A stretch of 64,000 bases of DNA from Acidimicrobiales bacterium (GTDB lineage Bacteria > Actinomycetota > Acidimicrobiia > Acidimicrobiales > DATDAH01). The notes beneath the pieces were generated by a model that ran no database searches, was not told the origin of the DNA, and saw only the letters and a list, made by a program, of their open reading frames with translations. The position numbers and the translations under genes are program-made. The stretch spans positions 127,444 to 191,443 of the forward strand of contig JAEUJM010000026.1 in the NCBI GenBank assembly GCA_016794585.1, read 5' to 3'. Positions 57,837 to 64,000 of this stretch are shown here, one piece after another (within the stretch, counting starts at the first letter, position 1; every line of letters starts with the position of its first letter).

Positions 57837-58739
57837 ATGGCCACCGTTCCCGTTCCACCCGTCCCCGCGGTTCCCCCCGGGCCTGTCCCGAGCCGACCGA
57901 CCCTGCGCGAGCTCGTCGACCAGCTCGAGCGGGTGCTCGAGCCCATGGGCTGGGACCAGCCCCCCGTCGCCGTCGGCATCGGCGCCGACGGCGAGATCGA
58001 GTTCGCCCTGGCCACCGCCGACATGGTCGATCCCATCGGCTCGCTCGTGGGCATCGACGCGAAGCGCTCCTGGATCGCCTACGGCGTGGTGGCCAGCGGG
58101 CGCGTCCACGACCTCGAGGAAGAGGCGGGTCGCTGCTACGGCCGCCGTCGGCCGGTCGAACAGCGGGCCCGCATGGGGCACTTCGTGGACCGCACCGGCG
58201 CGGTCACCGCCTACTTCCGGCTCCAGGACGGTCCCGACCGGGTGAGCGAGGAGCCGTCGATCGGGCGGGTCGACGACATCTGCCGTCGGGCGCTGGGCCT
58301 GCCGACGCCGGCACCGGCCAGTGCCGTCGAGCTGCTCTGGGCCTGCCACTGGCTCGAACGGGTGCTGTCGGCCGCCGCCGCGCACCCGAGCGAGGTGGGC
58401 ACCTGGCCCAGGGTGGCCGCGCACCATGCGGCCGTGGCCCGTGCGGCGGCGGCCGGTCGTCCCGCCCCCGACACCGTCGACGACCTCGTCCTGGCCGGGC
58501 GTTGGTACGCCGAGCAGGCGCCGTGGGAGTCCCTGCGCACCCAGACCGCGCGGGGCGAGCGCCGCTTCGATGCCGTCACCGCACCCCAGGCCCGTTGGAT
58601 GGACGCGGGGATGTTCTCACGCTGGATGCTCATGGATGTGGCCCCACTGGCCTATCTGCGTGAGGCGGTCGCCGTGGCGCTCTCCGCCGACGTCGCCGTC
58701 GCGGTGGACGAGACGCTCGACGGGTGGGGTCTCCCCTAG
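57837..58739 (+). CDS. Hypothetical protein, unknown function
   Basis: A 300-residue soluble protein that I do not recognise. After a Pro-rich first 20 residues comes LRELVDQLERVLEPMGWDQP and VGIGADGEIEFALATADMVD, then a mostly helical C-terminal half (AVELLWACHWLERVLSAAAA, WPRVAAHHAAVARAAAAG) with several His and Trp. There is no signal peptide or membrane helix. GAGGAGGG precedes ATG 57837. It lies between an LmeA-like gene and a membrane-protein gene with only 11 bp before the latter, so they may be one transcript. Confidence 0.72.
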   Translation: MATVPVPPVPAVPPGPVPSRPTLRELVDQLERVLEPMGWDQPPVAVGIGADGEIEFALATADMVDPIGSLVGIDAKRSWIAYGVVASGRVHDLEEEAGRCYGRRRPVEQRARMGHFVDRTGAVTAYFRLQDGPDRVSEEPSIGRVDDICRRALGLPTPAPASAVELLWACHWLERVLSAAAAHPSEVGTWPRVAAHHAAVARAAAAGRPAPDTVDDLVLAGRWYAEQAPWESLRTQTARGERRFDAVTAPQARWMDAGMFSRWMLMDVAPLAYLREAVAVALSADVAVAVDETLDGWGLP

Positions 58740-58750
58740 GGTGTCGGCCC

Positions 58751-59521
58751 ATGAGCGACCCCTTCGACCCCACCCAGGCCGGCGGCGTCCCCACGCCGCC
58801 CGCCGGGAACCCCTCCGTCGGTGGACCGGGCACCGGCGCGCCGGTTCCTCCGGACGCGCCGCCGACGGTGGCGTCGCCGTCCATCTACACCGATCCGCCG
58901 GTGACCGCCGCCGGAGCGGCGCCGGGCGGGCCCGGCGGCCCGGGAGGTCCGAACGACCCCAACGACCCGCTCGGTCCCGACGATCAGGAGCCGCCCGACG
59001 ATCGCTGGAAGATCTACCTGCTGGTCGGCCTCGCGGTGGTGGTCATCGCCCTGCTGATCGGCGGGATCATCCTGAGTCAGAGCGGCGACGACGACGGCGG
59101 GGACACCACCACCAGCTCGTCGTCCACGAGCAGCTCCACCACCACGTCGTCCACCAGCACCTCCACCACGAGCACGTCGACCACGACGACGACGGCACCG
59201 ACCACCACCACGGCGGCGCCGACCACCACCACGGCGGCCGGGCCCGCGGGAGCGTCCAGCCCCGAGGCGGCCTCCGCCAGCCTCTACGACGCCTGGACCG
59301 CGGGGGACCAGGCCAACGCCGGCACGTTCGCCGACCCTGATGCGGTGACGACGCTGTTCAGCCGGGACGGCGTGGGCAACGACCTCGACTTCCAGGGCTG
59401 CGACGCCGCCGGCAGCGGGTTCGACTGCACCTACAGCAACGACTCGGAGATCGTGCTGTTCACCGTGGACGAGGTGCCACGCGGCTACCGGGTCACCGCG
59501 GTGGCGTTCCCGAACGACTAG
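58751..59521 (+). CDS. Single-pass membrane protein with Ser/Thr stalk
   Basis: A 256-residue protein: Pro/Gly-rich cytoplasmic segment (1-93), one membrane helix at about 94-116 (YLLVGLAVVVIALLIGGIIL), a stalk of some 50 residues made almost only of Ser and Thr, and an extracellular domain of about 85 residues (PEAASASLYDAWTAGDQANA, FQGCDAAGSGFDCTYSN) with two Cys. The stalk may be O-mannosylated. The layout matches that of the convergent PknB-like kinase ectodomain, so a role at the envelope is likely. No known family. Confidence 0.78.
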   Translation: MSDPFDPTQAGGVPTPPAGNPSVGGPGTGAPVPPDAPPTVASPSIYTDPPVTAAGAAPGGPGGPGGPNDPNDPLGPDDQEPPDDRWKIYLLVGLAVVVIALLIGGIILSQSGDDDGGDTTTSSSSTSSSTTTSSTSTSTTSTSTTTTTAPTTTTAAPTTTTAAGPAGASSPEAASASLYDAWTAGDQANAGTFADPDAVTTLFSRDGVGNDLDFQGCDAAGSGFDCTYSNDSEIVLFTVDEVPRGYRVTAVAFPND

Positions 59522-59572: not shown

Positions 59573-61240
59573 TCAGCCCAGGACGCTCTCGCAGCTCCCG
59601 GACTGGTTCACGTCCGAGCGTCCACCGCACGTCGTGCCGAAGAGCTCGAGCTTCGAGCCCACCGGCGTGATGCGGAAGAGCTCGTCGCAGGCGGCGTTGT
59701 CGCCACCGCCGCAGGAGGCGATGAGGCTGTCGATGCTGCTGCCGGTGTCGGCGGTGGTGCCGCAGGTGCCGTTGGCCCCGGGGCTCGTGTCGCCGCAGCT
59801 GGACCCGAAGTCCTGCTGGGTCGACCCGGCCTCGGCCTCGAAGAACAGGAAGTCGCAGCGCAGGAGCTCCTGGGGATCGCCGGCCGCCGCCGCGCAGCGG
59901 GACTCCTCACCGTCGAGCGAGGCCTGATCGAGCAACGGCGGCGTGTCCGAGCCGGTGCCGGGATCGAACGCCGGCACGGTGGTCGTGGTGTTGTCGACCG
60001 AGGTGGTGGGCGGCGCCGCGGTGGTGCCGGGCGGGTCGTCACCGCCTCCGCCGCCGCCCAGGGCGACGACGAGGACGCCGACGATCAGGATGACCACGGC
60101 CGCGGCCCCGGCGCCGATGGCCCACACGGGCACCTTGGACTTCGTCGGCGGGGGCGGGGTGGGAACGGCGTAGCCCCCGGACGTGGCCGGTGGTGGTGTC
60201 GGCGGGATGGCGTAGCCCCCGGAGGTGGCCGGCGGCGGCGTGGGCGGGATGGCGTGCCCACCGGAGGTGGCCGGCGGCGGGGTGGCGGGGATGCCGGGGC
60301 TGGTCCGGCCGACGACCGTCGAGTTCGGGTCCATCGGCGGCGGTGGCGTCGCCGGGATCCCCGGGAGCGCCCCGGTGACGATGGTGCCGTCGGGGGCCGG
60401 CGCCCGCAGGGCCTGCATCGCCCGGGCGCCCAGCTCGCCGCAGCTGTCGAAGCGCTCGGCCGGGTCCTTGGCCATGGCTTTGGCGATCACGGCGTCGATG
60501 GCGGGCGGCAGCGTGGGCACCTTGTCGGTGGCCTTCGGCGCCTCACGGGTGAGGTGGGCGCCGATGATGGCCTGCACGTCGCCGACGAAGGGCGGCTCAC
60601 CGGTCAGGGACTCGTAGAGCAGGCAGCCGAGGGCGTACTGGTCACTGCGGCCGTCGAGGTCCTTGCCCTGGATCTGCTCGGGGGCGGCGTAGTACAAGGT
60701 GCCGAGGAACTGGCCGACCTGGGTGAGGCTCTGCTCGGCCGCCGTCTCCTTGGTGAGCCCGAAGTCGGCCAGGTAGACGTGGTCGGGGTCGCCCCCGGGC
60801 AACAGCACGTTGCCGGGCTTGACGTCCCGGTGCACCAGACCGGCCTGGTGGGCGAGGTCGAGGGCGCTCGCCACCTGGGCGACCACGGAGACCGCCTCGT
60901 CCGGGTCGAGCGGCCCGGTCTTGAGCTTCTCCTTGAGGTCGATGCCGTCGATGTAGCGCATGGCGATGTACAGGTGGCCGTCCGACTCGCCGGCGTCGTA
61001 CACGGGGACGATGTTGGGGTGGTGGTCGAGCTGGACGGCGAGCAGCGACTCGCGCTGGAAGCGGTCCCGGAAGTCCTCCTGGGCGCTCAGCTCGCTGCGC
61101 AGCACCTTGAGAGCGACCTTGCGGCGCATGGCGGGACGGAGGTCCTCGCCCAGGTAGACGGTGGCGAACCCCCCGGACCCGATGATCTCCAGGATGCGGT
61201 AGCCGGCGAACTCCGCGCCGACCTCGAACGTGTTGGACAT
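59573..61240 (-). CDS. PknB-like Ser/Thr protein kinase with cysteine-repeat ectodomain
   Basis: A 555-residue receptor kinase. The kinase domain (about 12-275) is complete: GSGGFATVYLG, Lys45 in VALKVL, HRDVKPGNVLL (137-147), DFG (159-161) and APE (186-188). A Pro-rich linker follows with three 14-residue repeats (I-P-P-T-P-P-P-A-T-S-G-G-Y-A). One membrane helix lies at about 374-395. The ectodomain has no PASTA repeats; it has eight Cys in two copies of a C-D-x-L-F...G-S...F-G-x2-C-G...G-x-C pattern. It probably senses an envelope signal and phosphorylates FHA partners such as the neighbouring Hsp70-FHA protein. Confidence 0.92.
   Translation of the reverse strand: MSNTFEVGAEFAGYRILEIIGSGGFATVYLGEDLRPAMRRKVALKVLRSELSAQEDFRDRFQRESLLAVQLDHHPNIVPVYDAGESDGHLYIAMRYIDGIDLKEKLKTGPLDPDEAVSVVAQVASALDLAHQAGLVHRDVKPGNVLLPGGDPDHVYLADFGLTKETAAEQSLTQVGQFLGTLYYAAPEQIQGKDLDGRSDQYALGCLLYESLTGEPPFVGDVQAIIGAHLTREAPKATDKVPTLPPAIDAVIAKAMAKDPAERFDSCGELGARAMQALRAPAPDGTIVTGALPGIPATPPPPMDPNSTVVGRTSPGIPATPPPATSGGHAIPPTPPPATSGGYAIPPTPPPATSGGYAVPTPPPPTKSKVPVWAIGAGAAAVVILIVGVLVVALGGGGGGDDPPGTTAAPPTTSVDNTTTTVPAFDPGTGSDTPPLLDQASLDGEESRCAAAAGDPQELLRCDFLFFEAEAGSTQQDFGSSCGDTSPGANGTCGTTADTGSSIDSLIASCGGGDNAACDELFRITPVGSKLELFGTTCGGRSDVNQSGSCESVLG
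60167..60292 (-). repeat. 42-bp tandem repeat x3 in the kinase linker
   Basis: Units 60167-60208, 60209-60250 and 60251-60292 encode the Pro/Thr-rich 14-residue repeats of the juxtamembrane linker. They are in frame and nearly identical, so the copy number may vary between strains. Confidence 0.85.
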
Positions 61241-61379: not shown

Positions 61380-62513
61380 TCAGGGCCGGCCGTAGCCGAC
61401 GGGCGTGCCCACGTAGCCGAGGCTGGCCGTACGCACGACGTCGCCGCTGTGGGGGGCGTGCACGGTCATGCCGCCGCCGATGTACATGCTCACGTGGTGG
61501 ATGGGGCTGCCGTAGAACACGAGGTCGCCGGGCTGGAGGTCGCTGGCCGAGACCCGTCGGGTGGCGCCGTACTGGGCCGCCGAGCTGTGGGGGAGCGAAC
61601 GGCCGGCACGGGCCCAGGCCCACATCATCAGGCCCGAGCAGTCGAACCCGCTCGGGTCGGCACCGCCCCAGCGGTAGGGCACGCCCTGCATGCTCATGGC
61701 CGCGGCCACCGCACCTGCGGCACCCGCCGCCGGCGGAGCCGGCGTGGGGGTGGGGCCCGGCGTGGTGCCGCCACCGCCGGTGTCGCCACCGCTGCCACCG
61801 TCCCCGGTGGGGGCGGTGGGGTTCTGGGCGGCGGCTTGCGCCGCGGCGGCGTCGAGGGCCGCCTGGCGGGCGGCGGCCTCGGCGGCGCGCTGCTGCTCGA
61901 TGAGGTCGGCGAGCTCGGCGTCGATCTGCGACTGGAGCTGCTCCTGCTCGTCGATGGCCTGCTGGGCATCGGCGGCGGACTGGTCGATCTGGGTGACGAG
62001 CTCCTCGGCCGCGGCCCGGTTCTCCTCGAGGTCGACCATGCGGTCTTCCACGTCCTGCTCGGTGGCCTGGAGCTGGTCGATGAGCTGGGCCCGGTTGCCG
62101 GTGACGGTGTCGAGGTAGCCGAGCCGCACGGGCATCTCTCGCTCGTCGCTGCTCTCGACGGCCACGGAGAGCGCTGAGTTGTCGGGGCCCCCGAGGTAGG
62201 CGCCCACGGCGTAGCTCTGGAGCTCGGTGCGGCGCTGGTCGCGCTCGGCCACGGTGGCGTCGAGGCGGTCCTGGGCCTGACCGATGCGCTCCTGCACCTC
62301 GGCCAATTCGGCGCGGGCCTCGTTGGCCCGGTCGGAGAGGCGCTCGTAGCGGGCACTCAGCTCGTCGAGGCGGGCCGCCACCTGGCGGGCCTCCTCGCGC
62401 TTGTCGTCGATGGGCGACTGGCCTGAGGCCGGGGTCGAAGCGAACAGCGTGAGGCCGGCGAGCAATGCTGCGATCACCACCACCGCGGTGCGCAGACGGG
62501 ATGTGTGCGTCAA
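61380..62513 (-). CDS. NlpC/P60 peptidoglycan endopeptidase with coiled coil (RipA/RpfB-partner type)
   Basis: A 377-residue secreted protein. A signal peptide (AVVVIAALLAGLTLF...PASG) is followed by a long coiled coil (about 36-230) like that of FtsX-dependent hydrolases, then a Gly/Pro/Thr linker and a C-terminal NlpC/P60 domain from about 265. The catalytic Cys is Cys292 in PSGFDCSGL, the His is His340 in IHHVSMYIG, and a third polar residue is His352. It cuts stem peptides in peptidoglycan and probably acts at division under autoinhibition by the coiled coil. The gene lies between a PknB-like kinase and an FHA protein. Confidence 0.92.
   Translation of the reverse strand: MTHTSRLRTAVVVIAALLAGLTLFASTPASGQSPIDDKREEARQVAARLDELSARYERLSDRANEARAELAEVQERIGQAQDRLDATVAERDQRRTELQSYAVGAYLGGPDNSALSVAVESSDEREMPVRLGYLDTVTGNRAQLIDQLQATEQDVEDRMVDLEENRAAAEELVTQIDQSAADAQQAIDEQEQLQSQIDAELADLIEQQRAAEAAARQAALDAAAAQAAAQNPTAPTGDGGSGGDTGGGGTTPGPTPTPAPPAAGAAGAVAAAMSMQGVPYRWGGADPSGFDCSGLMMWAWARAGRSLPHSSAAQYGATRRVSASDLQPGDLVFYGSPIHHVSMYIGGGMTVHAPHSGDVVRTASLGYVGTPVGYGRP

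Positions 62514-62640: not shown

Positions 62641-64000
<1,360 letters not shown>

What the first reader, a model, noticed from the sequence alone, without database searches (positions are those of the whole stretch)
59573..61240. PknB-like kinase with a twin cysteine-repeat ectodomain instead of PASTA
The ectodomain holds two copies of C-D-x-L-F...G-S...F-G-x2-C-G...G-x-C with eight Cys in total, behind a TM helix. This suggests a disulphide-stabilised sensor duplicated in tandem. I cannot place it in a named family.
Basis: seen in the sequence. Interest (0 to 1): 0.55.

Follow-up and report, generated by a model that had tools for sequence, protein, structure and literature searches.

The report
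Kinase with unnamed four-cysteine ectodomain repeats
A bacterial membrane kinase carries, on its presumed outer side, two copies of a small four-cysteine domain that has no name in the libraries searched and that also occurs on other actinobacterial surface proteins, which suggests a shared module for docking or sensing in the cell envelope.

Summary
ORF 59573-61240 (-) is a 555-aa Hanks-type Ser/Thr kinase with intact catalytic motifs, a proline-rich linker, one hydrophobic helix and a C-terminal region with two tandem units and eight cysteines. No PASTA match was found. In the family the unit is about 50-57 residues, longer than 33: C-x7-C-D-x-L-[FYW]...G-S...E...[FY]-G-x-T-C-G-G-R...C. Copy 2 is canonical; copy 1 has five extra residues between its first two cysteines. 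Pfam, NCBIfam, PHROGs and PDB sequences gave no convincing match.

The domain is not peculiar to kinases: 8 ORFs of this genome and 138 distinct ORFs read here carry it, in 1-6 copies, mostly (129 of 138, crude rule) with a lipobox or hydrophobic helix. Partners include trypsin-like proteases, DUF4190, LRV_2, DUF2510 and, twice, TIR. A kinase motif was seen in 1 of 138.

Best reading: an undescribed extracytoplasmic docking or sensing module, disulphide-braced as C1-C2 and C3-C4, placed on a receptor kinase by domain shuffling. Ligand, sensing and signalling are inferred. Precedent: the PknH sensor domain, also shared with lipoproteins.

The parts
59573..61240 (-). CDS of receptor-type Ser/Thr kinase, 555 aa
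60446..61201 (-). Protein kinase domain (residues 14-265), catalytic motifs intact
   Evidence: PF00069 E 5.6e-46; motifs
60146..60289 (-). Proline-rich juxtamembrane linker made of a 42-bp tandem repeat (3.4 copies)
60059..60133 (-). Hydrophobic stretch, presumed single transmembrane helix (residues 370-394)
   Evidence: read from the sequence; no topology predictor was run
59762..59914 (-). Domain copy 1 (residues 443-493), divergent, C-x12-C-x19-C-x10-C
59576..59761 (-). Domain copy 2 with a few residues before it (residues 494-555), canonical, C-x7-C-x19-C-x11-C; three helices plus a short C-terminal one in the model
61380..62513 (-). NlpC/P60 protein upstream in the same direction (139-bp gap); possibly co-transcribed (inference)
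   Evidence: PF00877 E 1.2e-25; arrangement
62641..64000 (-). Hsp70-FHA protein, same direction, runs past the window end (605 aa in L232:6085-7902)
   Evidence: PF00012 E 1.9e-49 and PF00498 E 1.1e-7

Best explanation
This is a receptor-type Hanks Ser/Thr kinase whose extracytoplasmic part is two copies of an undescribed, roughly 55-residue, four-cysteine, mainly helical domain. The domain is a promiscuous envelope module of Actinomycetota that is appended to many kinds of membrane-anchored protein. Shown: the anatomy, the duplication, the family, its spread in the samples searched and its partners. Inferred: the topology; two disulphides per unit (C1-C2 closing the helix-helix turn, C3-C4 closing the C-terminal loop); that the domain docks to a partner in the cell envelope (a protein, or less likely a wall polymer) and so places the kinase or changes its dimerisation; and that the kinase then phosphorylates an envelope-related target, with the adjacent Hsp70-FHA protein as a candidate phosphothreonine reader and the adjacent NlpC/P60 protein as a candidate wall-hydrolase output. 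The kinase may have gained the module by shuffling, since the nearest unit to copy 2 among those compared is in a lipoprotein-like ORF of the same genome.
For: Kinase and motifs. Twin units. Same unit in 8 ORFs / 15 matches of the own genome, the kinase included: three adjacent lipoprotein-like genes, one 4-unit lipoprotein-like gene, one DUF4190 protein and others. Spread, own genome counted in: 8 of 296 genomes of the phylum, 17 of 99 relatives, 69 of 397 of the order; with the single ectodomain sequence 4 of 198 (phylum) and 7 of 148 (class); 64 loci in named records, 63 of which the profile also finds (L110 not). Census of 138 distinct ORFs: 129 with a lipobox, one hydrophobic helix or several by a crude rule, 9 with none; 1-6 copies; median 2 residues after the last unit. 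Partners in 131 of those 138: DUF4190 9, LRV_2 8, Trypsin_2 7, DUF2510 4, kinase 1, TIR 1; a second TIR fusion in L245 (weak matches to TIR-bearing models). Cysteines: 144 of 149 distinct units have four, all 144 with C1-x7-C2; of 14 of 259 units that show only C1 and C2 in the profile columns, 10 lack both C3 and C4, 3 have displaced Cys and 1 is cut by a contig end; the one unit without C1 is cut by a locus edge. Single-unit model: blocks of residues 11-50 at pLDDT 90-95, pTM 0.71. Nearest unit to copy 2 of 256 compared: own-genome lipoprotein-like ORF, 58% identity, 71 bits against 62 for the next. Precedent: the PknH sensor domain has two disulphides and recurs in lipoproteins LpqQ, LprH, LppH, LpqA (passages of PMC4118811, and PMC3601408).
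Against: No ligand, partner or phenotype is known. The kinase fusion was seen once only (1 of 138 ORFs); none of 28 other kinase ORFs of the order has the domain; the closest kinase relative (55% identity, G310) runs off its contig, so its ectodomain cannot be read, and that 3461-base contig holds no NlpC/P60 or Hsp70-FHA match. Fold searches found nothing above noise. Gene neighbours of the domain in the named loci grouped by taxon and gave no functional hint by eye. Units are acidic (median net charge -11, 256 units), which argues against direct binding to anionic wall polymers. Copy 1 is divergent and the arrangement of the two copies is poorly predicted (pTM 0.50). The profile selects for Cys, so the conservation figures lean that way. 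In two multi-helix proteins the domain is internal, not C-terminal.
Confidence: 0.58

Rival explanations
1. Ligand sensor in the strict sense: a soluble molecule (muropeptide, glycan or small metabolite) binds the twin domain and drives kinase dimerisation, as proposed for PASTA and PknH kinases.
For: Receptor topology; TIR proteins, another signalling type, also carry the domain (L093; L245); NlpC/P60 neighbour; PASTA and PknH precedents (passages).
Against: Of 131 carriers scanned only the kinase and one TIR protein have a recognised signalling domain; the domain is small and acidic. No cleft was looked for and there are no binding data.
Confidence: 0.2
2. Passive, disulphide-braced spacer or protease-resistant cap at the end of surface proteins, without a specific partner.
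For: Usually C-terminal, variable number of copies, low-complexity linkers before it.
Against: Conservation goes beyond the Cys: D23 in 313 of 334, L25 in 329 of 334, G43 in 305 of 326 aligned rows (redundant rows). Part of this could be core packing.
Confidence: 0.15
3. Redox sensor: the disulphides are switchable and report oxidative conditions outside the membrane.
For: Four conserved Cys per unit.
Against: Fixed spacing and pairwise loss look structural, the unit pattern has no CxxC, and lipoprotein-like ORFs carry the same Cys.
Confidence: 0.05

Closest known systems
PknH of Mycobacterium tuberculosis (PknH-type sensor domain)
   Same: Receptor Ser/Thr kinase with a non-PASTA, disulphide-containing ectodomain whose domain is also found in lipoproteins (passages of PMC4118811; PMC3601408).
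   Different: No PknH-type domain among the Pfam families listed at E up to 1 for this protein. Here two small, mainly helical four-Cys units instead of one larger domain with a V-shaped cleft.
PknB/StkP/PrkC PASTA kinases (NF033483)
   Same: Kinase domain, one presumed transmembrane helix, repeated extracellular modules.
   Different: No PASTA; the NF033483 score is 302 bits against a 450-bit cut-off and covers only residues 14-299. The genome has PASTA domains in two other ORFs that also match the kinase family.
Sel1/Hcp-type cysteine-bridged helical repeats (similarity recalled, not from a call)
   Same: Helix, C-x7-C, helix pattern (the Sel1/Hcp side is recalled).
   Different: No Sel1 match in Pfam for 14 units at E up to 1 or 126 units at E up to 0.1; an extra C3-C4 loop.

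Membership tests
Hanks-type Ser/Thr protein kinase | Pkinase profile over its cut-off and intact catalytic motifs | tested here: met
   PF00069 157.5 bits against 31.7; P-loop, K, HRD, DFG, APE
Hanks-type Ser/Thr protein kinase | Kinase activity | not testable with these tools
   needs an in vitro assay
PASTA kinase (PknB/Stk1, NF033483) | PASTA repeats and score over the family cut-off | tested here: not met
   No PASTA match at E up to 1; 302 bits against a 450 cut-off, residues 14-299 only
PknH sensor domain | Match to the PknH-type domain profile | tested here: not met
   Not among the 6 Pfam families listed at E up to 1; that Pfam holds such a profile is recalled
PknH sensor domain | PknH fold with V-shaped cleft | tested here: inconclusive
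   Fold searches gave nothing above noise
Sel1/Hcp-type repeat | Match to the Sel1 repeat profile | tested here: not met
   Searches (14 units, E up to 1; 126 units, E up to 0.1) list no Sel1
Sel1/Hcp-type repeat | Alpha-alpha hairpin solenoid fold | tested here: inconclusive
   Helical model but no fold match above noise
The unnamed four-Cys domain described here | C-x7-C-x19-C-x9..11-C with CD-x-L and the TCGGR-like block | tested here: met
   Copy 2: x7, x19, x11, CDEL, TTCGGR. Family spacing from 144 four-Cys units. Copy 1 deviates at C1-C2 (x12)
The unnamed four-Cys domain described here | Two disulphides, C1-C2 and C3-C4 | not testable with these tools

The most novel reading that the evidence does not exclude
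The four-Cys domain is a shared extracytoplasmic contact module through which lipoproteins, membrane proteases, a receptor kinase and TIR receptors of actinobacteria meet, possibly by domain-domain contact, so that lipoproteins act as co-receptors or ligands of the kinase: a modular envelope signalling code that I found described nowhere in the searches made.
Probability: 0.17. Interest if true: 0.7.

Novelty: new variant of a known kind. Interest (0 to 1): 0.42.

Why it matters
It marks out a recurrent envelope domain for which the Pfam and NCBIfam copies searched gave no convincing match, present in 1-6 copies per protein and joined to a kinase, proteases and TIR proteins. A model of this domain would annotate the ends of many hypothetical actinobacterial surface proteins and give a testable handle on what a non-PASTA receptor kinase responds to.

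Tried and rejected
PASTA substitution of the housekeeping PknB: rejected, PASTA domains are in two other ORFs that match the kinase family.

Known domain: no convincing match. The weak ones were: Itf52_C E 0.13 and DUF282 E 0.57, one of 14 members each; of 126 members DUF6862 in 3 (best 0.0088), DUF281 in 2 (best 2.1e-4), and DUF4440, DUF7348 and DUF2310 in 1 each (0.031 to 0.089); NCBIfam, 8 unrelated families in 1-2 of 61 twin stretches, best 0.0015; PHROGs, 1 of 14 at 0.036; PDB sequences, 0 for the ectodomain, 1 chain at E 1.6, 0 with the deeper profile. They are scattered and unrelated, so I take them as chance or composition.

Known fold: Foldseek best E 4.6 (twin model) and 3.9 (single unit); VIA-align best Z 3.5 among 78 chains and 3.7 among 15. 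TPR-type chains and a copper storage protein are among the rows, but at Z 2 to 3.5, within the noise the tool describes. No Sel1/Hcp or PknH chain is listed; that excludes neither, and it does not show that the fold is new.

Phage or plasmid origin: no match of one 59-residue unit in phages or of the 117-residue ectodomain in plasmids.

Orthologous kinases with the same ectodomain: of 30 kinase ORFs read (28 relatives L179-L206, the window's own, and the cut-off G310 one) only the window's matches the domain profile. One search scored at most 9 candidates per genome and gave loci for the best matches only, so kinases can have been missed. G310 was checked for synteny: its 3461-base kinase contig has no NlpC/P60 or Hsp70-FHA match; partial Hsp70-FHA matches lie on two other contigs.

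Conserved neighbours of the domain genes: the 25 clusters printed follow taxonomy and looked like housekeeping genes or antisense reading frames by eye; no family scan was made of them.

Anti-phage defence: 35 PADLOC kinase-type models match the kinase (25 shown, mostly PD-T4-6); with so many models matching one kinase domain I do not take this as evidence of defence.

Literature: GDTCGGR, GATCGGR, GSTCGGR, CDDLYFESP and CDDLYYES gave 6 papers, each with GATCGGR once and none of the others; by title they are assay, vaccine or resistance papers, so I presume primers, but I opened none. CDDLYF, TCGGR, CDDLYY and GDTCGGR gave 106, of which the 15 listed hold only TCGGR. Topic searches: 0 papers; in the listings I saw no description of this domain. 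Two papers were seen as passages, the others as listings.

Full report
OBSERVATION. The finding is real and at the stated place. ORF 59573-61240 on the minus strand encodes 555 residues: kinase domain at residues 14-265 (PF00069, E 5.6e-46) with P-loop, lysine, HRD, DFG and APE motifs intact, a proline-rich linker with a 42-bp tandem repeat, a hydrophobic stretch from residue 370, a Thr-rich stretch and then the cysteine region. Eight ectodomain cysteines lie at 449, 462, 482, 493, 510, 518, 538 and 550. Copy 1 and copy 2 align over 33 columns (second to fourth cysteine) with a score reached by 1 of 5000 shuffles, also when the cysteines are held in place. A profile that includes copy 2 but not copy 1 finds copy 1 in the whole genome at E 1.2e-5.

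THE DOMAIN HAS NO NAME IN THE LIBRARIES SEARCHED. The ectodomain matched nothing in Pfam or NCBIfam at E up to 1 and nothing in PDB sequences at E up to 10. Family members scanned one by one gave only scattered weak hits, the best being DUF281 at 2.1e-4 in 2 of 126 members. A first profile met one PDB chain at E 1.6 and a deeper one none.

THE DOMAIN IS A FAMILY. A 14-row profile found 15 units in this genome, in 8 ORFs: three adjacent genes on C17 (5 units), one on C28 (2), C5 (4), C45 (1), C31 (1) and the kinase on C26 (2). The C17 and C5 proteins begin with lipobox-like signals as read from the translations. In samples of whole genomes, own genome counted in, it was found in 8 of 296 of the phylum at E up to 0.001, 17 of 99 near relatives and 69 of 397 of the order at E up to 1e-4; the single ectodomain sequence found 4 of 198 of the phylum and 7 of 148 of the class. 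These samples overlap, and in most genomes only part of the candidates was scored, so they are lower bounds. The one scan of named genomes returned 64 loci: 61 carry actinobacterial names (Geodermatophilus, Blastococcus, Cellulomonas, Actinotalea, Demequina, Acidimicrobiia and others; placed by name, not looked up) and 3 are records of one unclassified bacterium. The profile finds the domain in 63 of the 64; L110 is the exception. The scan used two short patterns, so absence from other phyla is not proven, and the unnamed-genome searches stayed inside the phylum.

ANATOMY OF THE UNIT. Of 149 distinct units from the named loci, 144 have four cysteines, all 144 with 7 residues between C1 and C2 and 143 with 19 between C2 and C3; C3-C4 spacing is 9, 10 or 11 in 140 of 144. 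Among 259 distinct units in all loci read up to then, 216 show all four Cys in the profile columns. Another 28 show three, and in all 28 printed rows a further Cys stands within the next 25 residues. Fourteen show only C1 and C2: ten of these lack C3 and C4 (half-units in L079, L096, L097, L100, L107; L127; two in L028; L095; L085), three in L161 have displaced cysteines, and one (L093) is cut by the contig end. One lacks C1 because the locus ends there (L132). This joint loss of C3 and C4 with C1 and C2 kept is my basis for proposing disulphides C1-C2 and C3-C4; it is inference, and the profile selects for Cys. Units are acidic: median net charge -11 over 256 units, -8 and -5 in the window's copies 1 and 2. 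AlphaFold with 126 rows gives copy 2 as helices 10-18, 22-31, 37-43 and 57-61, pLDDT 90-95 over residues 11-50, pTM 0.71; the twin model has mean pLDDT 81 and pTM 0.50, with the lowest confidence between the copies. Neither model has a fold match above noise.

WHAT CARRIES IT. In 138 distinct ORFs (72 of them from the named loci), a crude rule finds 48 with a lipobox, 61 with one hydrophobic helix, 20 with several and 9 with none. Copies per ORF: 64 with one, 40 two, 28 three, 4 four, 1 five, 1 six. The last unit is usually at the very end (median 2 residues after it, maximum 398). Only one ORF, the window's, has a kinase HRD-type motif, but 17 of the 138 are cut at the N-terminal side by a locus edge. 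In two multi-helix proteins read later the domain is internal (L242, L244). A Pfam scan of 131 of the 138, each given with at most 450 residues before the first unit (7 dropped to stay under the size limit or as fragments: L089 twice, L103, L125, L132, L157, L161), gives DUF4190 9, LRV_2 8, Trypsin_2 7, DUF2510 4, DUF4878 2, kinase 1 and TIR 1. A second TIR protein followed by a hydrophobic helix and the domain turned up later (L245; TIR judged from its likeness to L093 and weak matches to TIR-bearing models).

KINASE CONTEXT. The genome has 18 PF00069 matches over the cut-off, and PASTA domains in two other ORFs that are among them. In 148 genomes of the order, own included, 100 have a match to the kinase at E up to 1e-55; apart from the window's own and G310's best one (55% identity, cut off at its contig end), the listed matches are 37-48% identical. 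None of the 28 relatives whose loci were read carries the domain; by eye most carry PASTA-like ectodomains. So the fusion looks young or rare. Copy 2 is closest, among 256 units, to a lipoprotein-like unit of the same genome (58%, 71 bits against 62 for the next), which suits domain shuffling within the genome but is no tree. Upstream in the same direction lie an NlpC/P60 protein and an Hsp70-FHA protein, with gaps of 139 and 127 bp, so the three may be one operon; FHA domains bind phosphothreonine (general knowledge), which makes that protein a candidate reader of the kinase. Divergently there are two dynamin-type GTPases, the second joined to a kinase-like domain with HQN in place of HRD (read).

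HOW IT MAY WORK. The best precedent is PknH of M. tuberculosis, whose sensor domain with two disulphides is also found in lipoproteins and is thought to bind a small molecule (passages read). By analogy the twin domain would dock to an envelope component or sense it, and place or dimerise the kinase. Because the same domain sits on lipoprotein-like proteins, proteases and TIR proteins, I favour a docking module over a dedicated sensor. The acidic charge argues against simple binding to anionic wall polymers. None of this is shown.

VERDICT. Real; ordinary as a kinase, unusual in its ectodomain. The new element is the domain family and its use across signalling and non-signalling surface proteins. 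I file it as a new variant of a known kind, interest 0.42. On re-checking, the confidence of the best explanation went from 0.60 to 0.58 because 17 ORFs of the census are cut and the rarity of the kinase fusion is therefore less sure.

Noticed in passing
L093:3098-4408; L245:992-1816: TIR domain, one hydrophobic helix, then several copies of the same four-Cys domain: a receptor-like TIR protein in two genomes (one an Acidimicrobiia MAG, one unnamed of the same class as the window).
   Followed up: partly
L232:9580-12660 (beyond the window, C26:193579-196659): Kinase-like domain fused to a dynamin-type GTPase, with HQN instead of HRD in the catalytic loop, next to a second dynamin-type GTPase: a possible pseudokinase-dynamin pair, divergent from the Hsp70-FHA gene.
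   Followed up: partly
window 60146-60289: 42-bp tandem repeat (3.4 copies) encoding the Pro-rich juxtamembrane linker of the kinase.
   Followed up: no
window 58724-59521 (+): Convergent gene for a single-helix protein with a Thr/Ser-rich stretch and a short C-terminal region with two Cys; only a sub-threshold Mucin match in Pfam.
   Followed up: no
L114:1486-2736 (Pfam); L160, L168, L169, L170 (by eye): Trypsin-like proteases with one or two copies of the four-Cys domain at the C-terminal side, in several genomes of the order; 7 of 131 ORFs match Trypsin_2.
   Followed up: partly
L009:7244-9075 (C17): Three adjacent genes for small lipoprotein-like proteins, each with one or two copies of the domain, an apparent tandem gene duplication.
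   Followed up: no
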